Shown here piece after piece: positions 2,376-7,364 of a stretch of 7,364 bases of DNA. Every line of letters starts with the position of its first letter. The first letter of the stretch is position 1. The stretch is from J061 sp003695725 [NCBI: Candidatus Schekmanbacteria bacterium]. GTDB lineage: Bacteria > Schekmanbacteria > GWA2-38-11. The translations under genes were made by a program, and so were the position numbers. The notes under the pieces are model-generated. The model searched no databases. It was given only the letters and a program-made list of their open reading frames with translations, and had not been told where the DNA came from. The stretch lies in assembly GCA_003695725.1 (NCBI GenBank), contig RFHX01000066.1, forward strand, positions 1 through 7,364, read 5' to 3'.

Positions 2376-2950
2376 AGTTTTTGATTTGTCTTTTTTTCCA
2401 AGGTTAAGAGTCTCTCTTTAATTTCCTTTCCTCCTGTGAAACCTCCCAAATCGCCATTTGATTTTATTATTCGATGGCAGGGAATGATTAAAGGAATGGG
2501 ATTCTTCCCTAGGGCATTTCCAACAGCTCTTGACAATGAGGGGCTTCCTAATTTTTTTGCGATGCTCTGATAAGTTGTAGTTTCTCCATAAGGAATCTTT
2601 AATACAGCTTTCCAAACAGCAATTTCAAAATCTGTTGCTTTCAAAATGCATAGAGATTTGAATTGAGGCGCATTCCCTTTTTTAAGATATTTTAGGATGA
2701 CAGAAGAATATCCTGCTGTTAGTTTTGCTGAATAAGATAATCTGACGAAGGGAAAAGAGGAAAAATATTTTATAAAACGTCTTTCAGAATCTTTACCAAT
2801 AGTGATATTGCATATTAAATTATCAATTACGGCAATATATATTTTTCCTATTGGTGAATAAAAATGTGAGTAAAAGACTGTTGTTTTTTTATCTGCTAAT
2901 CGACTATTTCCAGGGACCCTGTCCGTTTGAGCAATTTTCAACTGAAGCAT
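2372..2950 (-). CDS. ogt: Methylated-DNA--protein-cysteine S-methyltransferase (O6-alkylguanine-DNA alkyltransferase)
   Basis: A suicide DNA-repair protein that moves alkyl groups from O6-alkylguanine (and O4-alkylthymine) in DNA onto its own cysteine. The 192 residues contain the RNase H-like N-terminal domain (about 24-105) and the DNA-binding winged helix with active site (about 106-188). The acceptor is Cys158 in PCHRI (157-161; codon at 2477-2479). RAVGNALGKNP (141-151) carries the recognition-helix Arg141 and the Asn145 expected of the family. There is no Ada-type N-terminal zinc domain, so this is a stand-alone Ogt. The start is ATG at 2950; the only other candidate is a TTG at 2941. 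Either start adds about 20 residues before family similarity begins and makes the gene overlap the pilin gene by about 40-47 bp. The Shine-Dalgarno is weak (GGA 7-9 nt upstream), suggesting coupling to the upstream gene. Confidence 0.95.
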   Translation of the reverse strand: MLQLKIAQTDRVPGNSRLADKKTTVFYSHFYSPIGKIYIAVIDNLICNITIGKDSERRFIKYFSSFPFVRLSYSAKLTAGYSSVILKYLKKGNAPQFKSLCILKATDFEIAVWKAVLKIPYGETTTYQSIAKKLGSPSLSRAVGNALGKNPIPLIIPCHRIIKSNGDLGGFTGGKEIKERLLTLEKKTNQKL

Positions 2951-3518
2951 CGTAAATCCATGTTTTTATTCTTCCATTCGTTGTTACGCTGATGGCTCTC
3001 CAATGAATGGTCTTTTGATCATGATCTTCATCGTCATCCTCAGGGATTAAATATACAGACCCATTTTTGTCGGGCCTTCCTGTTGGCGTGAATGTTACTT
3101 TGTCTCCTGTAAAGTGAATGCCGTCAGAGTCTATTGTGCCTCCGCAAGTGGTCCTTTTTACCCCTGACTTTGCTCTACCAAATTTGATTCCTGATGGAAG
3201 ATGGTATCTTTCTGCATCATAAAGGGTTTCTGTAGGATCCTTTGTGCCATCGTTGTCATCATCATCAAGTATTTCATATCTATAAATGTTATTTGCGTCT
3301 GGAGAATAAAAATAAACAATAAAATTGTTGTTTTCAGATACAGCTTTAAGACGTGCCCATTGAAGGTTCGAAGCAAGAGTTCTTACTGCATTGTTGACTC
3401 GAAATTTAGGAAGCATATTTATAAGGTTAAACATAGCAATACCTGCAACTAAACCAATGATTACCACGACAATTATTATCTCAATCATGGTAAATCCTTT
3501 TATACCTTTTTTATTCAT
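2904..3518 (-). CDS. Type IV pilin-like / type II secretion pseudopilin, GspH/FimT family
   Basis: A 204-residue prepilin. The leader MNKKGIKG ends in Gly8 and is followed by Phe9, with Glu13 at mature position +5. This is the prepilin-peptidase (PilD) site, and a hydrophobic helix follows to about residue 30. The following region (QWARLKAVSENN, 53-64) and the C-terminal TTNGRIKTW (179-187) look like GspH/FimT minor pilins, which prime or cap pseudopili in the inner membrane and periplasm. Two acidic stretches stand out: residues 85-97, which fit a DxDxDGxxDxxE calcium loop, and EDDDEDHD (160-167). Cys125 and Cys196 could form a disulphide. The reading frame stays open to a TTG at 3650, but the ATG at 3518 is chosen because it gives a textbook short leader and lies about 50 nt downstream of a good -10 box. 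No other pilus or secretion gene is visible, so the machine it serves is unknown. Confidence 0.9.
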   Translation of the reverse strand: MNKKGIKGFTMIEIIIVVVIIGLVAGIAMFNLINMLPKFRVNNAVRTLASNLQWARLKAVSENNNFIVYFYSPDANNIYRYEILDDDDNDGTKDPTETLYDAERYHLPSGIKFGRAKSGVKRTTCGGTIDSDGIHFTGDKVTFTPTGRPDKNGSVYLIPEDDDEDHDQKTIHWRAISVTTNGRIKTWIYDASVENCSNGQGPWK

Positions 3519-3566
3519 ATGGCTGATAATCGAATTTAGAAATTTAAATGTGAAGGTCTCAGATAA

Positions 3567-3595
3567 AGTATATAGGGCTATTAAGTAAATGTCTA
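3567..3595 (-). promoter_or_regulatory. Putative sigma-70-type promoter for pilin-ogt-transporter set
   Basis: On the minus strand TAGACA (3595-3590, 5 of 6 to consensus) is followed by a 17-bp spacer and TATACT (3572-3567, 5 of 6). Transcription would start near 3560, about 40 nt before the pilin ATG at 3518. A transcript starting there excludes the longer TTG start at 3650. No second promoter is evident in front of ogt or the transporter, both of which overlap the gene before them. Confidence 0.6.
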
Positions 3596-3633
3596 TATAG
3601 TTATTGATAGAGTTTCTAATTTTTTGAAAATTT

Positions 3634-3654
3634 GAGAATTTCTCTTCCAAGAGA
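3634..3654. repeat. Overlapping inverted repeats in the chemoreceptor-pilin intergenic region
   Basis: GAGAATTTCTC (3634-3644) is a palindrome apart from its central base. TCTCTTCCAAGAGA (3641-3654) is a perfect inverted repeat with a 2-base centre, and more GAGA sequence follows to 3658. The two share TCTC, so the strand could fold either way. The cluster lies 36-57 nt downstream of the chemoreceptor stop and about 40-60 nt upstream of the pilin -35 box. It could be a weak terminator or a protein-binding operator. No long T tract follows on the minus strand, so terminator function is doubtful. Confidence 0.4.
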
Positions 3655-3689: not shown

Positions 3690-5720
3690 TTAAAAAGATT
3701 CTAATATCTTTTCGTCTTCAGAGCTATTGAAGGGAATTATATTTTCTACATTATTTTCTTTGACTATTTTAGTTGGATCTTTTTTCTTTTTGACTTTTCC
3801 TTTTTCAGTTAGGATAAAGTTGCCCATCATATCTTTTACTTCAGCAGATTGTCCTGCCAATTCTTGTGATGCGCTTGCAAGTTGTTGTGAGCTTGCGGCA
3901 TTTTGTTGAGTTATTATGTTGAGCTGGTCAACTTCGGAAAAGATGTTGTTTGCTCTTTCATTTTGTTCTATCAATGCTTGTGCTATTTGCTTTATTTCAT
4001 TGTTTGCTTTGTTGATGTGTTCGAGTGTTTCATTCATTATGTTAATTACCGAGTCATTGATTTGAACTGCGTTTTCAGCGTTTTCTATTGAATCTTTGAT
4101 AAGTTCAGCCGAATTTCTTGCCGCTTCAGCACTCTTGATAGCAAGATTTCTTACTTCCTCTGCAACAACGGCGAATCCCTTTCCTGCTTCGCCTGCCCTT
4201 GCCGCTTCAACAGAGGCATTGAGAGCAAGAAGGTTTGTTTGAAAGGCAATTTCATCGATTGTCTTTACAATCTTTCCTGTCGCATCCGATGATTCCTTTG
4301 TTTTCAATATTGCTTCAGATAAGATATTCATTTTCTTCATGCTTTCATCTGTCAATTTTTTCGCATCTTCTGAGATTTCCATTGCATGCTTTGCTGAGTT
4401 GCTGTTTTTATTTGTAACTTCCTTCATTTCTTCGATGTTTTTAGAAATATTCTCCTGTGATTGTGTTTGTTCATATGCTCCGCCTGCAAGCACCTGACTG
4501 CTTTCCGAAATCTGTCTCGAAGCTTCAAGGACCTGTTCAGCCGAACATTTTGTCTGTAACAGAATTGTATCAAGATTTGAAACTGCTTTATTGAGCGATT
4601 CCTTTATTTTTGCGAATTCGCCAGCATAGTCATTTTTCATTCTAACGGCAAGGTTATAGTTTGCGATTTTTTCAAGTACTTCAGCTGATTCATCAATAGG
4701 TTTTATAATAGAATCGAGAAGTTCATTTGAAGTTACAGCAAGTTTCCTGAAACTTCCCTTATACTTTGATACATCAACTCTCTTTTTAAGATTTCCTTCC
4801 TTTGCGCTTCTGATGACTGCTTCAGTATCATCTATAACTTCTCTTAATGTATTCTGAAGGTTCAAGAAGGATTTATTCATCTCATCTTTTTCACTTTTCA
4901 TTACTGCAGAAATTTTAAGTTTGCCATTTGCCAATTCGTTGACACATTTAGCGGCATTTTTTATATATTCTGTCAATTCTCTGAAAGCTTGCGCCAACAT
5001 CCCTATCTCATCCTTTGAATTATATTCTATTTCTATATTTGTTTCGCCCATCGATATCCTCTTTGCTGTTTCTGAGATATCTTTCAGCGGTTTTGTAATT
5101 CTTCTTAAAATTAGGAAAATTATTGAAGCAAGAACTAAGGTAAGAAGGAATGATTTTATGAGATCTTTTCTTATGTTTGCGTTGAGCATCTTTATTTTCG
5201 AATTTGCCCACATTTCTAAATTTAAAAAAGCCATTATCTTTCCTTTTTCAACATTGCTGTGACAATCAATACATCTTTCATCTGCTTTGATTGGGATTAG
5301 TCCCTCAATGAACTCCTTACCTCTTATATTATTGTTTAAGTTAAAGTTTTCAGAATCACTGCCGGAATTGGATTTGACTAAATTTTTGATTTTCTCTTTT
5401 TGTAGTTTTTCACTTGCTTTTGAAGAGAGATAAATTTTCCCATCAGATGTTATAATTGATACTCCTTTGACAGAATCTATTTTAACTGCATCGTTGATTG
5501 TTTGCTGAATGATTTGTTTTTCACCTTTTACCATACTGCTTTTTATTACGGACTTTACTAAAGCCGATAAGTCAGTTGCTTCTTTAATCAGGTCTGTTTT
5601 AAATTCTTCTTTTGCTTTTTTGGTTTGAAAATAAGTGTTTATCCCTAAAATTATCAAGAGAGTGGAACAAATCATCAAAGCTGTTTTTATTGAAATCCCA
5701 ATACCTTCACTCCTTTTCAT
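3690..5720 (-). CDS. Methyl-accepting chemotaxis protein with periplasmic haem-c sensor domain and multiple HAMP-like modules
   Basis: A 676-residue transmembrane chemoreceptor that should control a CheA kinase through CheW. In order: first membrane helix (about 9-28); periplasmic sensor (about 29-187) containing CIDCH at 150-154, a CXXCH covalent haem-c site (bases 5259-5273); second helix (about 188-206); HAMP with TKPL and DEIG (about 207-256); two or three further HAMP-like stretches (about 257-385); long coiled-coil arms; and the hairpin tip [20 protein letters not shown] (491-510), near-identical to the conserved MCP signalling motif. The sensor layout resembles the DUF3365/Tll0287-like haem family. 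It lacks a C-terminal xWxxF pentapeptide for CheR/CheB docking and ends in a lysine-rich linker and acidic tail. The start is ATG at 5720, 6 nt after GAGGAG; a TTG at 5726 abuts that Shine-Dalgarno and is rejected. It follows the HDOD gene by 22 bp, so the two are probably co-transcribed. Confidence 0.96.
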
Positions 5721-5726
5721 TAGCAA

Positions 5727-5732
5727 CTCCTC
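5727..5732 (-). promoter_or_regulatory. Ribosome binding site of the chemoreceptor gene
   Basis: GAGGAG on the minus strand lies 6 nt before the ATG at 5720-5718. It directly touches the TTG at 5726-5724. Spacing therefore favours the ATG and makes the protein two residues shorter than the longest open frame. Confidence 0.8.
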
Positions 5733-5742
5733 TTATAGTTGT

Positions 5743-6588
5743 TTATAGAAATGAATTTCCAATCCTCTCTACTTCAGTGACTAATTCAAAGATTATAAGA
5801 TTTAGCTCTTTCCCTATTATTTCAAGAAGCTTGGCATTTTCTATCTCCGGTTTGTATGCAATACCATCTGCGCCAATTCCGATTCCTGCCATTAAACACA
5901 TAAGGTCGCTGAGGTGTATGATTTCTATTGATTCTCTTATTTCTTCAGGGCTTTTATCCGGTTCATGATGATATTTAATTATTGTTGTCAGTTCATTTGG
6001 AAAATTCCACTTCTCAGAAAGTATTGCTCCAACTTCGGCATGTGTAGTATTTAGGATTTCTTTTTCAGCTTCCGAAAATGTGCATTTTTTTTGAATCACG
6101 AGTTTGTAAATTTTCATATATTCATTTTTTACATATCTGCTTAATATAAGTTTCCCTATGTCGTGGAGAAGAGATGCTGTAAAAAGCATAGTTTGGTTTT
6201 CTCTATTCATTTTCTTCAACAATATTTGTGAAGCGCTTGCGCATCCTGTCGAATGCCTATAAAGTTCTCCTTCATCAAGACAATATCCATCGATTTCTTC
6301 TTTCAAAAAATTTGCAGAACTTCCCATCAAAGCAATCTTGATAAGTTCATTAGTGCCAACATAAGTTGCCGCTTCATTGAGAGATGAAACCTTTCTCATT
6401 AGCCCATAATAAGCTGAATTGCATATTTTCAAGGTATTGGCTGTAATTGCTGGATCATACTTGATGATGTCAACTATCTCTGACAACTCAACATCCTTCT
6501 TATCAAGTAATGCTACAGTTTTCATAAAAACTGTCGGCAATGTGGGGAGAGTTTCGATACTCTCCATTATTTCATTTAAGCAGTTCAT
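5743..6588 (-). CDS. HDOD-domain signalling protein
   Basis: A 281-residue cytoplasmic protein made almost wholly of one HDOD domain (about residues 4-205) with a helical C-terminal part. The N-terminus ETLPTLPTV (12-20) and DPAITANTLKICNSAYYG (45-62) are typical of HDOD proteins. The HD-like part keeps His112, His142-Asp143 (LLHDIGKL), His183, His207-His208 and Asp228. HDOD proteins are commonly found in bacterial signalling and chemotaxis clusters and usually act as scaffolds; enzymatic activity is generally not demonstrated. The retained ligand pattern leaves metal binding possible. No receiver, GGDEF or EAL domain is attached. The gene lies between cheB and the chemoreceptor on the same strand, 22 bp before the latter, suggesting a role in the same pathway. 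The ATG at 6588 is chosen because family similarity begins almost at once, but no Shine-Dalgarno is visible before it. Confidence 0.92.
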   Translation of the reverse strand: MNCLNEIMESIETLPTLPTVFMKTVALLDKKDVELSEIVDIIKYDPAITANTLKICNSAYYGLMRKVSSLNEAATYVGTNELIKIALMGSSANFLKEEIDGYCLDEGELYRHSTGCASASQILLKKMNRENQTMLFTASLLHDIGKLILSRYVKNEYMKIYKLVIQKKCTFSEAEKEILNTTHAEVGAILSEKWNFPNELTTIIKYHHEPDKSPEEIRESIEIIHLSDLMCLMAGIGIGADGIAYKPEIENAKLLEIIGKELNLIIFELVTEVERIGNSFL

Positions 6589-6595
6589 AACTGAG

Positions 6596-6667
6596 TTAAC
6601 AGAAAAAATCTTTTAGATTAAATTTATCGTCATAACTCATTGATATTTTATAAATAAAATCTTCCAT
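6596..6667 (-). CDS. Possible 23-residue micro-ORF between cheB and the HDOD gene
   Basis: An ATG 4 nt after the cheB stop opens a frame of 23 codons (MEDFIYKISM... ending KDFFC) closing with TAA 7 nt before the HDOD ATG. It fills nearly the whole 83-bp gap. A weak AAAAGG lies 12 nt upstream of its ATG, inside the end of cheB. The HDOD gene has no Shine-Dalgarno of its own, so translation of this frame could deliver ribosomes to the HDOD start. The product resembles nothing I recognise. A frame this short is quite likely by chance in AT-rich DNA. Confidence 0.25.
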   Translation of the reverse strand: MEDFIYKISMSYDDKFNLKDFFC

Positions 6668-6671
6668 AGGA

Positions 6672-7364
6672 TTAGCATACCTTTTGTACTTTTGAATTTT
6701 TTGATGCTGCTTTTAAAATTGAAGAAGCTATATCTTTCAAGTGTGCAATCTCGTTCACCGCACCGAGCTTAATCGCTTCCTGCGGCATTCCAAAAATAGC
6801 TGAGGATTCTTCGTCTTGAGCTATTGTGTAAGCTCCTCTTTTGTGCATTGCCAACAAGCCTTCTGCTCCATCTGAGCCCATTCCAGTGAGAAGCACGCCA
6901 ACTGCATTTTCCTTTGCCTGTGAAGCAACAGAATAAAAGAGAACATCGATGCTCGGTTTTTGATAATTGATTAATGGTCCATCCTTTATTTTGGTAAAAT
7001 AGTTGCCGTTGTTTTTTACGATACTAAGGTGTTTGTCTCCCGGTGCAATATATGCCTTGCCATCTTCAATCAGAGTATTGTCTTGAGCTTCGCAGACTTC
7101 CATTGCGCTTATTCCATTGAGTCGATCGGCAAATTGTTTTGTAAATCCTGCAGGCATATGAAGTACTATTACACAGGCAGGAGAATTTGGAGGAAGTGAA
7201 GTAATTATTTCTTGAATCGCCTGCGGTCCCCCTGTGGATGCGCCAATTGCTATGATTTTATTAAAAGAAAGAAATGAAGGTTGAATTTTTGGAATAACTT
7301 GATTGATATCTTTTCTATAAATTTTGCCATTGATTTTTGCTATGGCCGCTGCCCTGATAGAATG
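6672..7364 (-). CDS. cheB: Chemotaxis response regulator protein-glutamate methylesterase CheB, C-terminal part (cut by window edge)
   Basis: CheB removes methyl groups from (and deamidates) glutamyl residues of chemoreceptors, giving adaptation. The frame is open to the window edge, so 230 residues are visible. They comprise an interdomain linker (HSIRAAAIAKINGK...) and the complete methylesterase domain from about visible residue 36. The catalytic triad is present: Ser43 in GASTGG (codon 7236-7238), His69 in HMPAGF (codon 7158-7160) and Asp165 in TGMGSDG (codon 6870-6872). The AAQ/IAPG-type core (YIAPGDKH) and the C-terminal FGMPQEAIKLGAV are also typical. The N-terminal receiver domain expected of CheB must lie beyond 7364. 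The Met codon at 7157 is internal, in the middle of the active site, and is not the start. The stop is 4 nt before the micro-ORF and 83 bp before the HDOD gene. Confidence 0.95.
   Translation of the reverse strand, partial: HSIRAAAIAKINGKIYRKDINQVIPKIQPSFLSFNKIIAIGASTGGPQAIQEIITSLPPNSPACVIVLHMPAGFTKQFADRLNGISAMEVCEAQDNTLIEDGKAYIAPGDKHLSIVKNNGNYFTKIKDGPLINYQKPSIDVLFYSVASQAKENAVGVLLTGMGSDGAEGLLAMHKRGAYTIAQDEESSAIFGMPQEAIKLGAVNEIAHLKDIASSILKAASKNSKVQKVC

What the first reader, a model, noticed from the sequence alone, without database searches (positions are those of the whole stretch)
3690..5720. Chemoreceptor whose periplasmic sensor carries a c-type haem motif
CIDCH at protein residues 150-154 lies between two membrane helices, so it faces the periplasm where haem c is attached. 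This predicts a chemoreceptor that senses redox state or a gas such as O2, NO or CO. Haem-c MCP sensors have been characterised in Geobacter, but the sensor sequence here may be a distinct version, with a long Asn/Ser-rich segment (about 118-132) before the haem motif.
Basis: partly seen in the sequence, partly recalled or inferred. Interest (0 to 1): 0.6.

Follow-up and report, generated by a model that had tools for sequence, protein, structure and literature searches.

The report
Periplasmic haem-c chemoreceptor, known Geobacter type
This gene encodes a chemotaxis receptor that very probably carries a covalently bound haem outside the cell membrane to sense redox state or nitric oxide; it is an ordinary new member of a sensor family already solved in Geobacter.

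Summary
Observation confirmed: a 676-residue chemoreceptor at 3690-5720 (-) with CIDCH at residues 150-154, between two hydrophobic segments. Its sensor passes the Pfam cut-off for PF21563 (29.4 bits, cut-off 27), the family of the Geobacter haem-c sensors GSU0935 and GSU0582 (166 and 160 bits). It stays below the DUF3365/Tll0287 cut-off. C150, C153 and H154 are kept in 18 of 18 rows and in 30 of 30 of a larger, overlapping set; a motif-blind search gave a haem motif in 30 of 30 loci inspected. Met63 aligns with Met60, the distal ligand of GSU0935, and is kept in 29 of 30. The Asn/Ser-rich stretch is a variable loop. The gene probably ends a che operon (inferred from a contig overlap) in a genome with flagellin, one detected CheA and three detected chemoreceptors. 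Most likely mechanism: redox-linked Met/His haem switch; NO or CO displacing Met is the main rival. No haem was measured. New member of a known kind; interest low.

The parts
3690..5720 (-). mcp: haem-c chemoreceptor, 676 aa
   Evidence: translation; Pfam: PF21563, HAMP, HAMP_2, MCPsignal
5727..5731 (-). AGGAG ribosome-binding site 6 bases upstream of the ATG
   Evidence: sequence
5634..5705 (-). TM1, about residues 6-29
   Evidence: hydropathy
5247..5561 (-). sensor domain, residues 54-158, PF21563 Mcp40H-20_sensor
5532..5534 (-). Met63, candidate distal haem ligand, aligned with Met60 of GSU0935
5325..5369 (-). Asn/Ser-rich loop, residues 118-132; variable, no sign of conservation
5259..5273 (-). 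CIDCH, residues 150-154: Cys150/Cys153 thioethers, His154 proximal ligand (inferred)
5091..5168 (-). TM2, about residues 185-210
   Evidence: hydropathy
4962..5114 (-). HAMP, residues 203-253
4572..4766 (-). second HAMP (HAMP_2), residues 319-383
3858..4394 (-). MCP signalling domain, residues 443-621
   Evidence: gap-free 302-residue alignment with Tsr
5743..6588 (-). HDOD protein, 281 aa, ending 22 bases before the mcp start
   Evidence: 56% identical to the HDOD protein of the relative's che operon
6672..7364 (-). cheB, 3' part (5' end beyond the contig end)

Best explanation
A transmembrane chemoreceptor with a single-Cache (PAS-like) periplasmic domain that carries one haem c. Haem is attached through Cys150 and Cys153 with His154 as proximal ligand, and Met63, near the end of the first periplasmic helix, is the distal ligand in the reduced state. 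Oxidation releases Met63 and reduction lets it bind; this moves the N-terminal helices against the beta-sheet, passes through TM2 and two HAMP segments to the hairpin tip, and sets the CheA kinase that is probably encoded in the same operon, biasing flagellar motion. Shown here: domain order, family, conservation of the haem-ligand positions, genomic setting. Inferred from GSU0935/GSU0582: haem attachment, ligand switch, helix movement. The sign of the response is unknown.
For: PF21563 over cut-off; the GSU0935 and GSU0582 stretches are strong members of PF21563. The profile of the 18-row alignment, window included, finds 3b42 and 3b47 as its only clearly significant solved relatives (1.9e-16 and 6.1e-15; next 0.0022). 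A profile built without the window scores the window sensor at 99.4 bits, and none of 200 shuffled copies is reported. C/C/H columns kept in 18 of 18 rows and in 30 of 30 loci; a haem motif in 30 of 30 motif-blind loci. Met at the GSU0935 Met60 position in both GSU chains and 16 of 18 homologues and in 29 of 30 of the larger, overlapping set. Model: motif on a short helix between two strands, Met63 in the first long helix. The genome has CcsB over its cut-off with ResB beside it, for haem-c attachment, flagellin-type proteins, one detected CheA, three detected MCPsignal proteins. The relative in the same family has the same receptor (41% identity) with CIECH and Met in a complete che operon. 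Redox-linked Met switch in the GSU sensors: PMC8396549, passages.
Against: No haem or ligand was measured. The window sensor is only 16.5% and 17.6% identical to the two solved sensors over 109 and 108 aligned residues, and phmmer with the window sensor alone finds neither at E <= 1. Two of 18 homologues lack the Met (L015, L026). The structural model is weak (mean pLDDT 61.6, four-row alignment, model residues 74-109 below 50) and holds no haem; 3b42 and 3b47 are not among the fold-match rows shown. The 2026 preprint argues that signalling members of the related Tll0287 family are NO sensors.
Confidence: 0.68

Rival explanations
1. Same haem-c sensor, but the physiological signal is nitric oxide (or CO) bound at the distal site, with redox state only a precondition.
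For: GSU0582/GSU0935 bind NO and CO (PMC8396549 and PMC3460858, passages), displacing Met60 in the reduced form (PMC8396549, passage); a signalling sCache_heme protein holds NO with slow release (PMC12889525, parts 1-3 of 6 read).
Against: The window protein stays below the Tll0287 cut-off and carries the Met; the preprint's tested signalling protein is described as lacking the axial Cys, and whether it has the Met was not checked. The one COX1-family protein detected in the genome is best matched by cbb3 oxidase models, and no NrfA was detected, so no link to NO metabolism was seen; other NO enzymes were not sought and the genome is in 374 contigs.
Confidence: 0.22
2. Aerotaxis receptor that binds O2 directly.
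For: The genome has a COX1 protein best matched by cbb3-type oxidase models, so oxygen is probably met; haem proteins can bind O2.
Against: The two related sCache_heme proteins tested form no stable O2 complex and autoxidise (PMC12889525); a Met-ligated haem c disfavours O2 binding (general knowledge). O2 could still act indirectly by oxidising the haem.
Confidence: 0.05
3. Not a haem protein: CXXCH binds zinc or forms a disulphide, and the Cache pocket binds a small molecule.
For: The predicted fold resembles ordinary extracytoplasmic sensor domains; no haem was measured.
Against: Conservation of C, C, H in a family with two haem-c crystal structures, the conserved Met, and a genome with several multihaem proteins and a System II maturation pair.
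Confidence: 0.05

Closest known systems
GSU0935 (PDB 3b42) and GSU0582 (PDB 3b47), haem-c chemoreceptors of Geobacter sulfurreducens; Pfam PF21563
   Same: Same Pfam family, CXXCH at the same place, Met at the distal-ligand position; TM-sensor-TM-HAMP-MCP order (theirs from PMC8396549 and PMC3460858, passages).
   Different: 16.5% and 17.6% identity over 109 and 108 aligned residues. The window hairpin aligns to Tsr over 302 residues without gaps, as expected of a 36-heptad receptor, although the Pfam name says 40H. The window gene sits in a probable che operon, whereas Geobacter chemoreceptor genes are described as dispersed (PMC2577667, passage). Whether the GSU proteins also have HAMP_2 was not tested.
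DUF3365/Tll0287-like (PF11845), sCache_heme of preprint PMC12889525
   Same: Described as a Cache fold with CXXCH on a short helix inserted between strands 3 and 4 and with signalling fusions; the window model has the motif on a short helix between two strands.
   Different: Window scores 11.1 bits (whole protein) and 14.4 bits (sensor piece) against a cut-off of 24.1; the distal position is Met, not the Cys of Tll0287. The genome has a separate member over the cut-off (L001, 92.9 bits). The preprint counts GSU0582 and GSU0935 in its data sets; here their sensor stretches match PF21563 and not PF11845 at E <= 1.
Di-haem relatives with a further motif 38-44 residues before the motif at the window's site (for example L033 in the same genome, L078-L080)
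   Same: Align over the whole sensor; all 22 share Met63 and the last C/C/H.
   Different: 22 of 30 loci inspected carry two motifs; in 16 of these 22 the last one is CX4CH. The window has one. Sensors with an added motif are already reported (PMC3831638, passage, naming Gsu0591 and Gsu0599).

Membership tests
PF21563 Mcp40H-20_sensor (GSU0935/GSU0582) | Score over the curated Pfam cut-off (27 bits) | tested here: met
   29.4 bits whole protein, 32.8 first 234 residues
PF21563 Mcp40H-20_sensor (GSU0935/GSU0582) | CXXCH near the C-terminal end of the sensor | tested here: met
   CIDCH 150-154; C, C, H invariant in 18 of 18 rows
PF21563 Mcp40H-20_sensor (GSU0935/GSU0582) | Distal Met equivalent to GSU0935 Met60 | tested here: met
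   Met63 in the same column as the Met of both GSU chains; numbering derived and PMC8396549; ligation itself not tested
PF21563 Mcp40H-20_sensor (GSU0935/GSU0582) | Covalent haem c, high-spin oxidised and low-spin reduced | not testable with these tools
   needs protein
PF21563 Mcp40H-20_sensor (GSU0935/GSU0582) | Helix-swapped dimer | not tested
   only a monomer was predicted
PF11845 Tll0287-like / DUF3365 | Score over the curated Pfam cut-off (24.1 bits) | tested here: not met
   11.1 bits whole protein, 14.4 first 234 residues
Cache superfamily fold | Long N-terminal helix, beta-sheet, Cache-like neighbours in structure comparison | tested here: inconclusive
   first rows are mostly extracytoplasmic sensor domains, Z up to 10.5 over 124 residues (whose note says a best Z of 7 to 8 is common by chance); the model has mean pLDDT 61.6
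Methyl-accepting chemotaxis protein | MCPsignal domain and HAMP | tested here: met
   PF00015 125.4 bits, HAMP 66.7, HAMP_2 66.5

The most novel reading that the evidence does not exclude
PF21563-type sensors and their di-haem relatives form a Met/His haem-c switch class much wider than the Geobacter pair: the distal Met is kept in 29 of 30 sampled proteins from 30 genomes, mono- and di-haem, on kinases, cyclases and chemoreceptors. In this lineage such a sensor is the receptor built into what looks like the only che operon, so the organism's flagellar navigation would be set mainly by periplasmic redox state rather than by nutrients.
Probability: 0.25. Interest if true: 0.42.

Novelty: new member of a known kind. 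Interest (0 to 1): 0.22.

Why it matters
It extends a solved family of haem-c chemoreceptors to a poorly sampled lineage and ties it to a probable che operon, and it points to one residue (Met63) whose mutation would separate redox sensing from NO sensing, a point on which the Geobacter work and the 2026 preprint lean differently. It does not change the picture of how such receptors work.

Tried and rejected
Asn/Ser-rich segment as a special feature: rejected. It falls in a loop of variable length and composition, and the closest relative found (41% identity overall) does not share it. Loss of a first haem motif at that place, as in di-haem relatives: possible, but the solved GSU sensors also have only one, so no loss is needed; no tree was made (the tree module was loaded but not run).

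DUF3365/Tll0287 membership: tested, below cut-off.

Direct link to solved structures by single-sequence search: none at E <= 1; only the family profile reaches 3b42 and 3b47. These two are not among the fold-search rows shown (50 of 243 matches; 50 entries); they are described as helix-swapped dimers, which may hide them from a monomer model.

Close relatives in the named genome collection by the window sensor: none confirmed (which may leave out the window's own or very near genomes). The di-haem query gave three Nitrospinota/Nitrospinae loci. The phylum of the window was not determined; a guess at Schekmanbacteria, for which I only looked up the name, has no support here.

NrfA: none detected. 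Promoter and terminator scan: near the chance level (14 found, 11.3 expected; 3 found, 2.2 expected).

A C-terminal tether pentapeptide: the tail ILESF resembles FLQSF and ILQSF of two receptors of the relative, but it does not fit the aromatic-x-x-aromatic consensus that I recall; not pursued.

Full report
Observation. The ORF at 3690-5720 (-) reads 676 residues from an ATG preceded by AGGAG. CIDCH is at residues 150-154. Hydropathy gives two membrane segments, about 6-29 and 185-210; the protein has 5 Cys and 3 His, and 17 of 200,000 shuffles of it contain CXXCH. HAMP starts at 203, a second HAMP (HAMP_2) spans 319-383 and the MCP signalling domain 443-621.

Family. Pfam places the sensor (54-158) in PF21563, Mcp40H-20_sensor: 29.4 bits for the whole protein, 32.8 for the first 234 residues, cut-off 27. 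The stretches of GSU0935 (3b42) and GSU0582 (3b47) printed score 166.3 and 160 bits against PF21563 and give no PF11845 match at E <= 1, so PF21563 is the family of the Geobacter haem-c chemoreceptors.

Homologues. PF21563 was sought in 98 genomes, the window's own included: 13 have a match at E <= 0.001 (11 with a match over the cut-off), 18 places in all. From these I aligned 17, the window being one (L027, a PF11845-type protein with CLQCH, was left out), plus the own-genome paralogue L013, which is below the cut-off (14.2 bits). In the 18 rows C150, C153 and H154 are invariant; two rows, L022 and L030, have one or two extra residues between the cysteines. The wider profile search found matches in 116 of 386 genomes; of these I inspected the 30 loci fetched, L031-L060, one for each of 30 genomes, which overlap the first set: C, C and H in 30 of 30 and Met at column 63 in 29 of 30 (the exception is L045). 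Because a profile that holds the motif favours motif-bearing hits, I repeated the search with a ten-row alignment that stops before the motif: 42 of 193 genomes matched, and all 30 loci fetched, the window among them, carry C-x(2-4)-CH within 200 residues of the start of the match. In one of them, L105, that motif is at the place of the first motif of the di-haem relatives, and the window's site reads C-x5-CH. The motif-blind profile was still built from haem-type proteins, and the places without a fetched locus were not inspected. A profile built from 17 rows without the window scores the window sensor at 99.4 bits (E 1.9e-27 for 177,635 sequences), with none of 200 shuffles reported.

Ligands. 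In the alignment of the profile with 3b42, Cys106 of the chain corresponds to Cys140 of GSU0935 in the numbering of PMC8396549, so the Met in the profile's conserved Met column, chain position 26, is Met60. PMC8396549 (passages) gives Met60 and His144 as axial ligands of GSU0935, with Met bound in the reduced form and released on oxidation, and reports CO binding in the reduced form and NO in both. Met63 of the window falls in the Met60 column, shared by both GSU chains and by 16 of 18 other homologues (L015 and L026 lack it). In A1 as first aligned the count is 15 of 18 rows, the window included, at that exact column; L016 has its Met one column off there.

Structure. A four-row model (window, L078-L080) has mean pLDDT 61.6 and pTM 0.52: long helix, second helix, two strands, a poor stretch 74-109, a strand, a short helix at 121-126 where the motif (model residues 123-127) lies, a strand, a last helix. 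The preprint PMC12889525 (parts 1-3 of 6 read) puts the haem motif on a short helix between strands 3 and 4. Foldseek and VIA-align list mostly extracytoplasmic sensor domains first (WalK, a LapD relative, PctC, TlpC; Z up to 10.5). The model is too weak to judge haem geometry.

Setting. HDOD (5743-6588) ends 22 bases before mcp, and cheB (6672-7364) runs off the contig. Contig C287 of the same genome ends in the 5' part of cheB and overlaps the window's end by 161 bases with 2 mismatches, so the operon is probably cheY, cheX, a protein with a C-terminal receiver-like part (29.3 bits, just under its cut-off), cheA, cheW, cheR, cheD, cheB, HDOD, mcp. That the two contigs adjoin is inferred. The nearest genome, G001 (same family, other genus), has the same receptor (41% over 632 columns) with CIECH and Met, plus a CZB zinc-binding domain that the window lacks, lying between a cheW-like gene and a cheR-like gene in a similar operon that ends in cheB and HDOD (only cheB, HDOD and the receptor of it were run against Pfam, the other names rest on reading the translations). 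The HDOD proteins are 56% identical. Two other genomes of the order gave no match at 1e-20 (one is 70% complete). The window's genome (374 contigs, 97.8% complete) has one CheA detected, three MCPsignal proteins, two flagellin-type proteins, CcsB with ResB beside it, one COX1 protein best matched by cbb3 oxidase models (only the matched part was scanned and it is under the whole-protein cut-offs), no NrfA detected, and several multihaem proteins.

Mechanism. Most likely a haem-c redox switch: Met63 binds reduced iron and leaves oxidised iron, moving the N-terminal helix and hence TM2, HAMP and the hairpin, whose 302-residue gap-free alignment with Tsr suggests ordinary CheA control. NO or CO at the same site is the main rival. 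Direct O2 binding and a haem-free role are unlikely.

Novelty. The kind is known (PMC8396549, PMC3460858, PMC3831638 and PMC2577667, passages; PMC12889525, parts 1-3 of 6). Paper searches. The window protein is a new, divergent member.

Noticed in passing
window 6672-7364 and L075 (G000:C287) 6573-7093: The two contigs overlap by 161 bases with 2 mismatches inside cheB, which suggests strain variation broke the assembly there and gives the rest of the che operon.
   Followed up: yes
L068 6552-9035: The relative's version of this receptor carries a C-terminal CZB zinc-binding domain (PF13682, 48 bits), so one receptor may combine haem and zinc sensing; the window copy shows none.
   Followed up: partly
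window 3693-3707; L062 and L065 receptor ends: Receptor tails ILESF, FLQSF and ILQSF look alike and may tether CheR or CheB, though they do not fit the recalled aromatic consensus.
   Followed up: no
window 5743-6588: HDOD protein next to cheB in two genera (56% identity), an unexplained partner of this che system.
   Followed up: partly
L031-L060: 22 of 30 relatives inspected have two haem motifs in the sensor, the last one CX4CH in 16 of the 22; the conserved Met is kept in all 22.
   Followed up: partly
window 2904-3650 (-): GspH-like pseudopilin with a prepilin N-terminus, lying between mcp and a methylguanine-DNA methyltransferase-like gene whose listed frame overlaps its 3' end.
   Followed up: no
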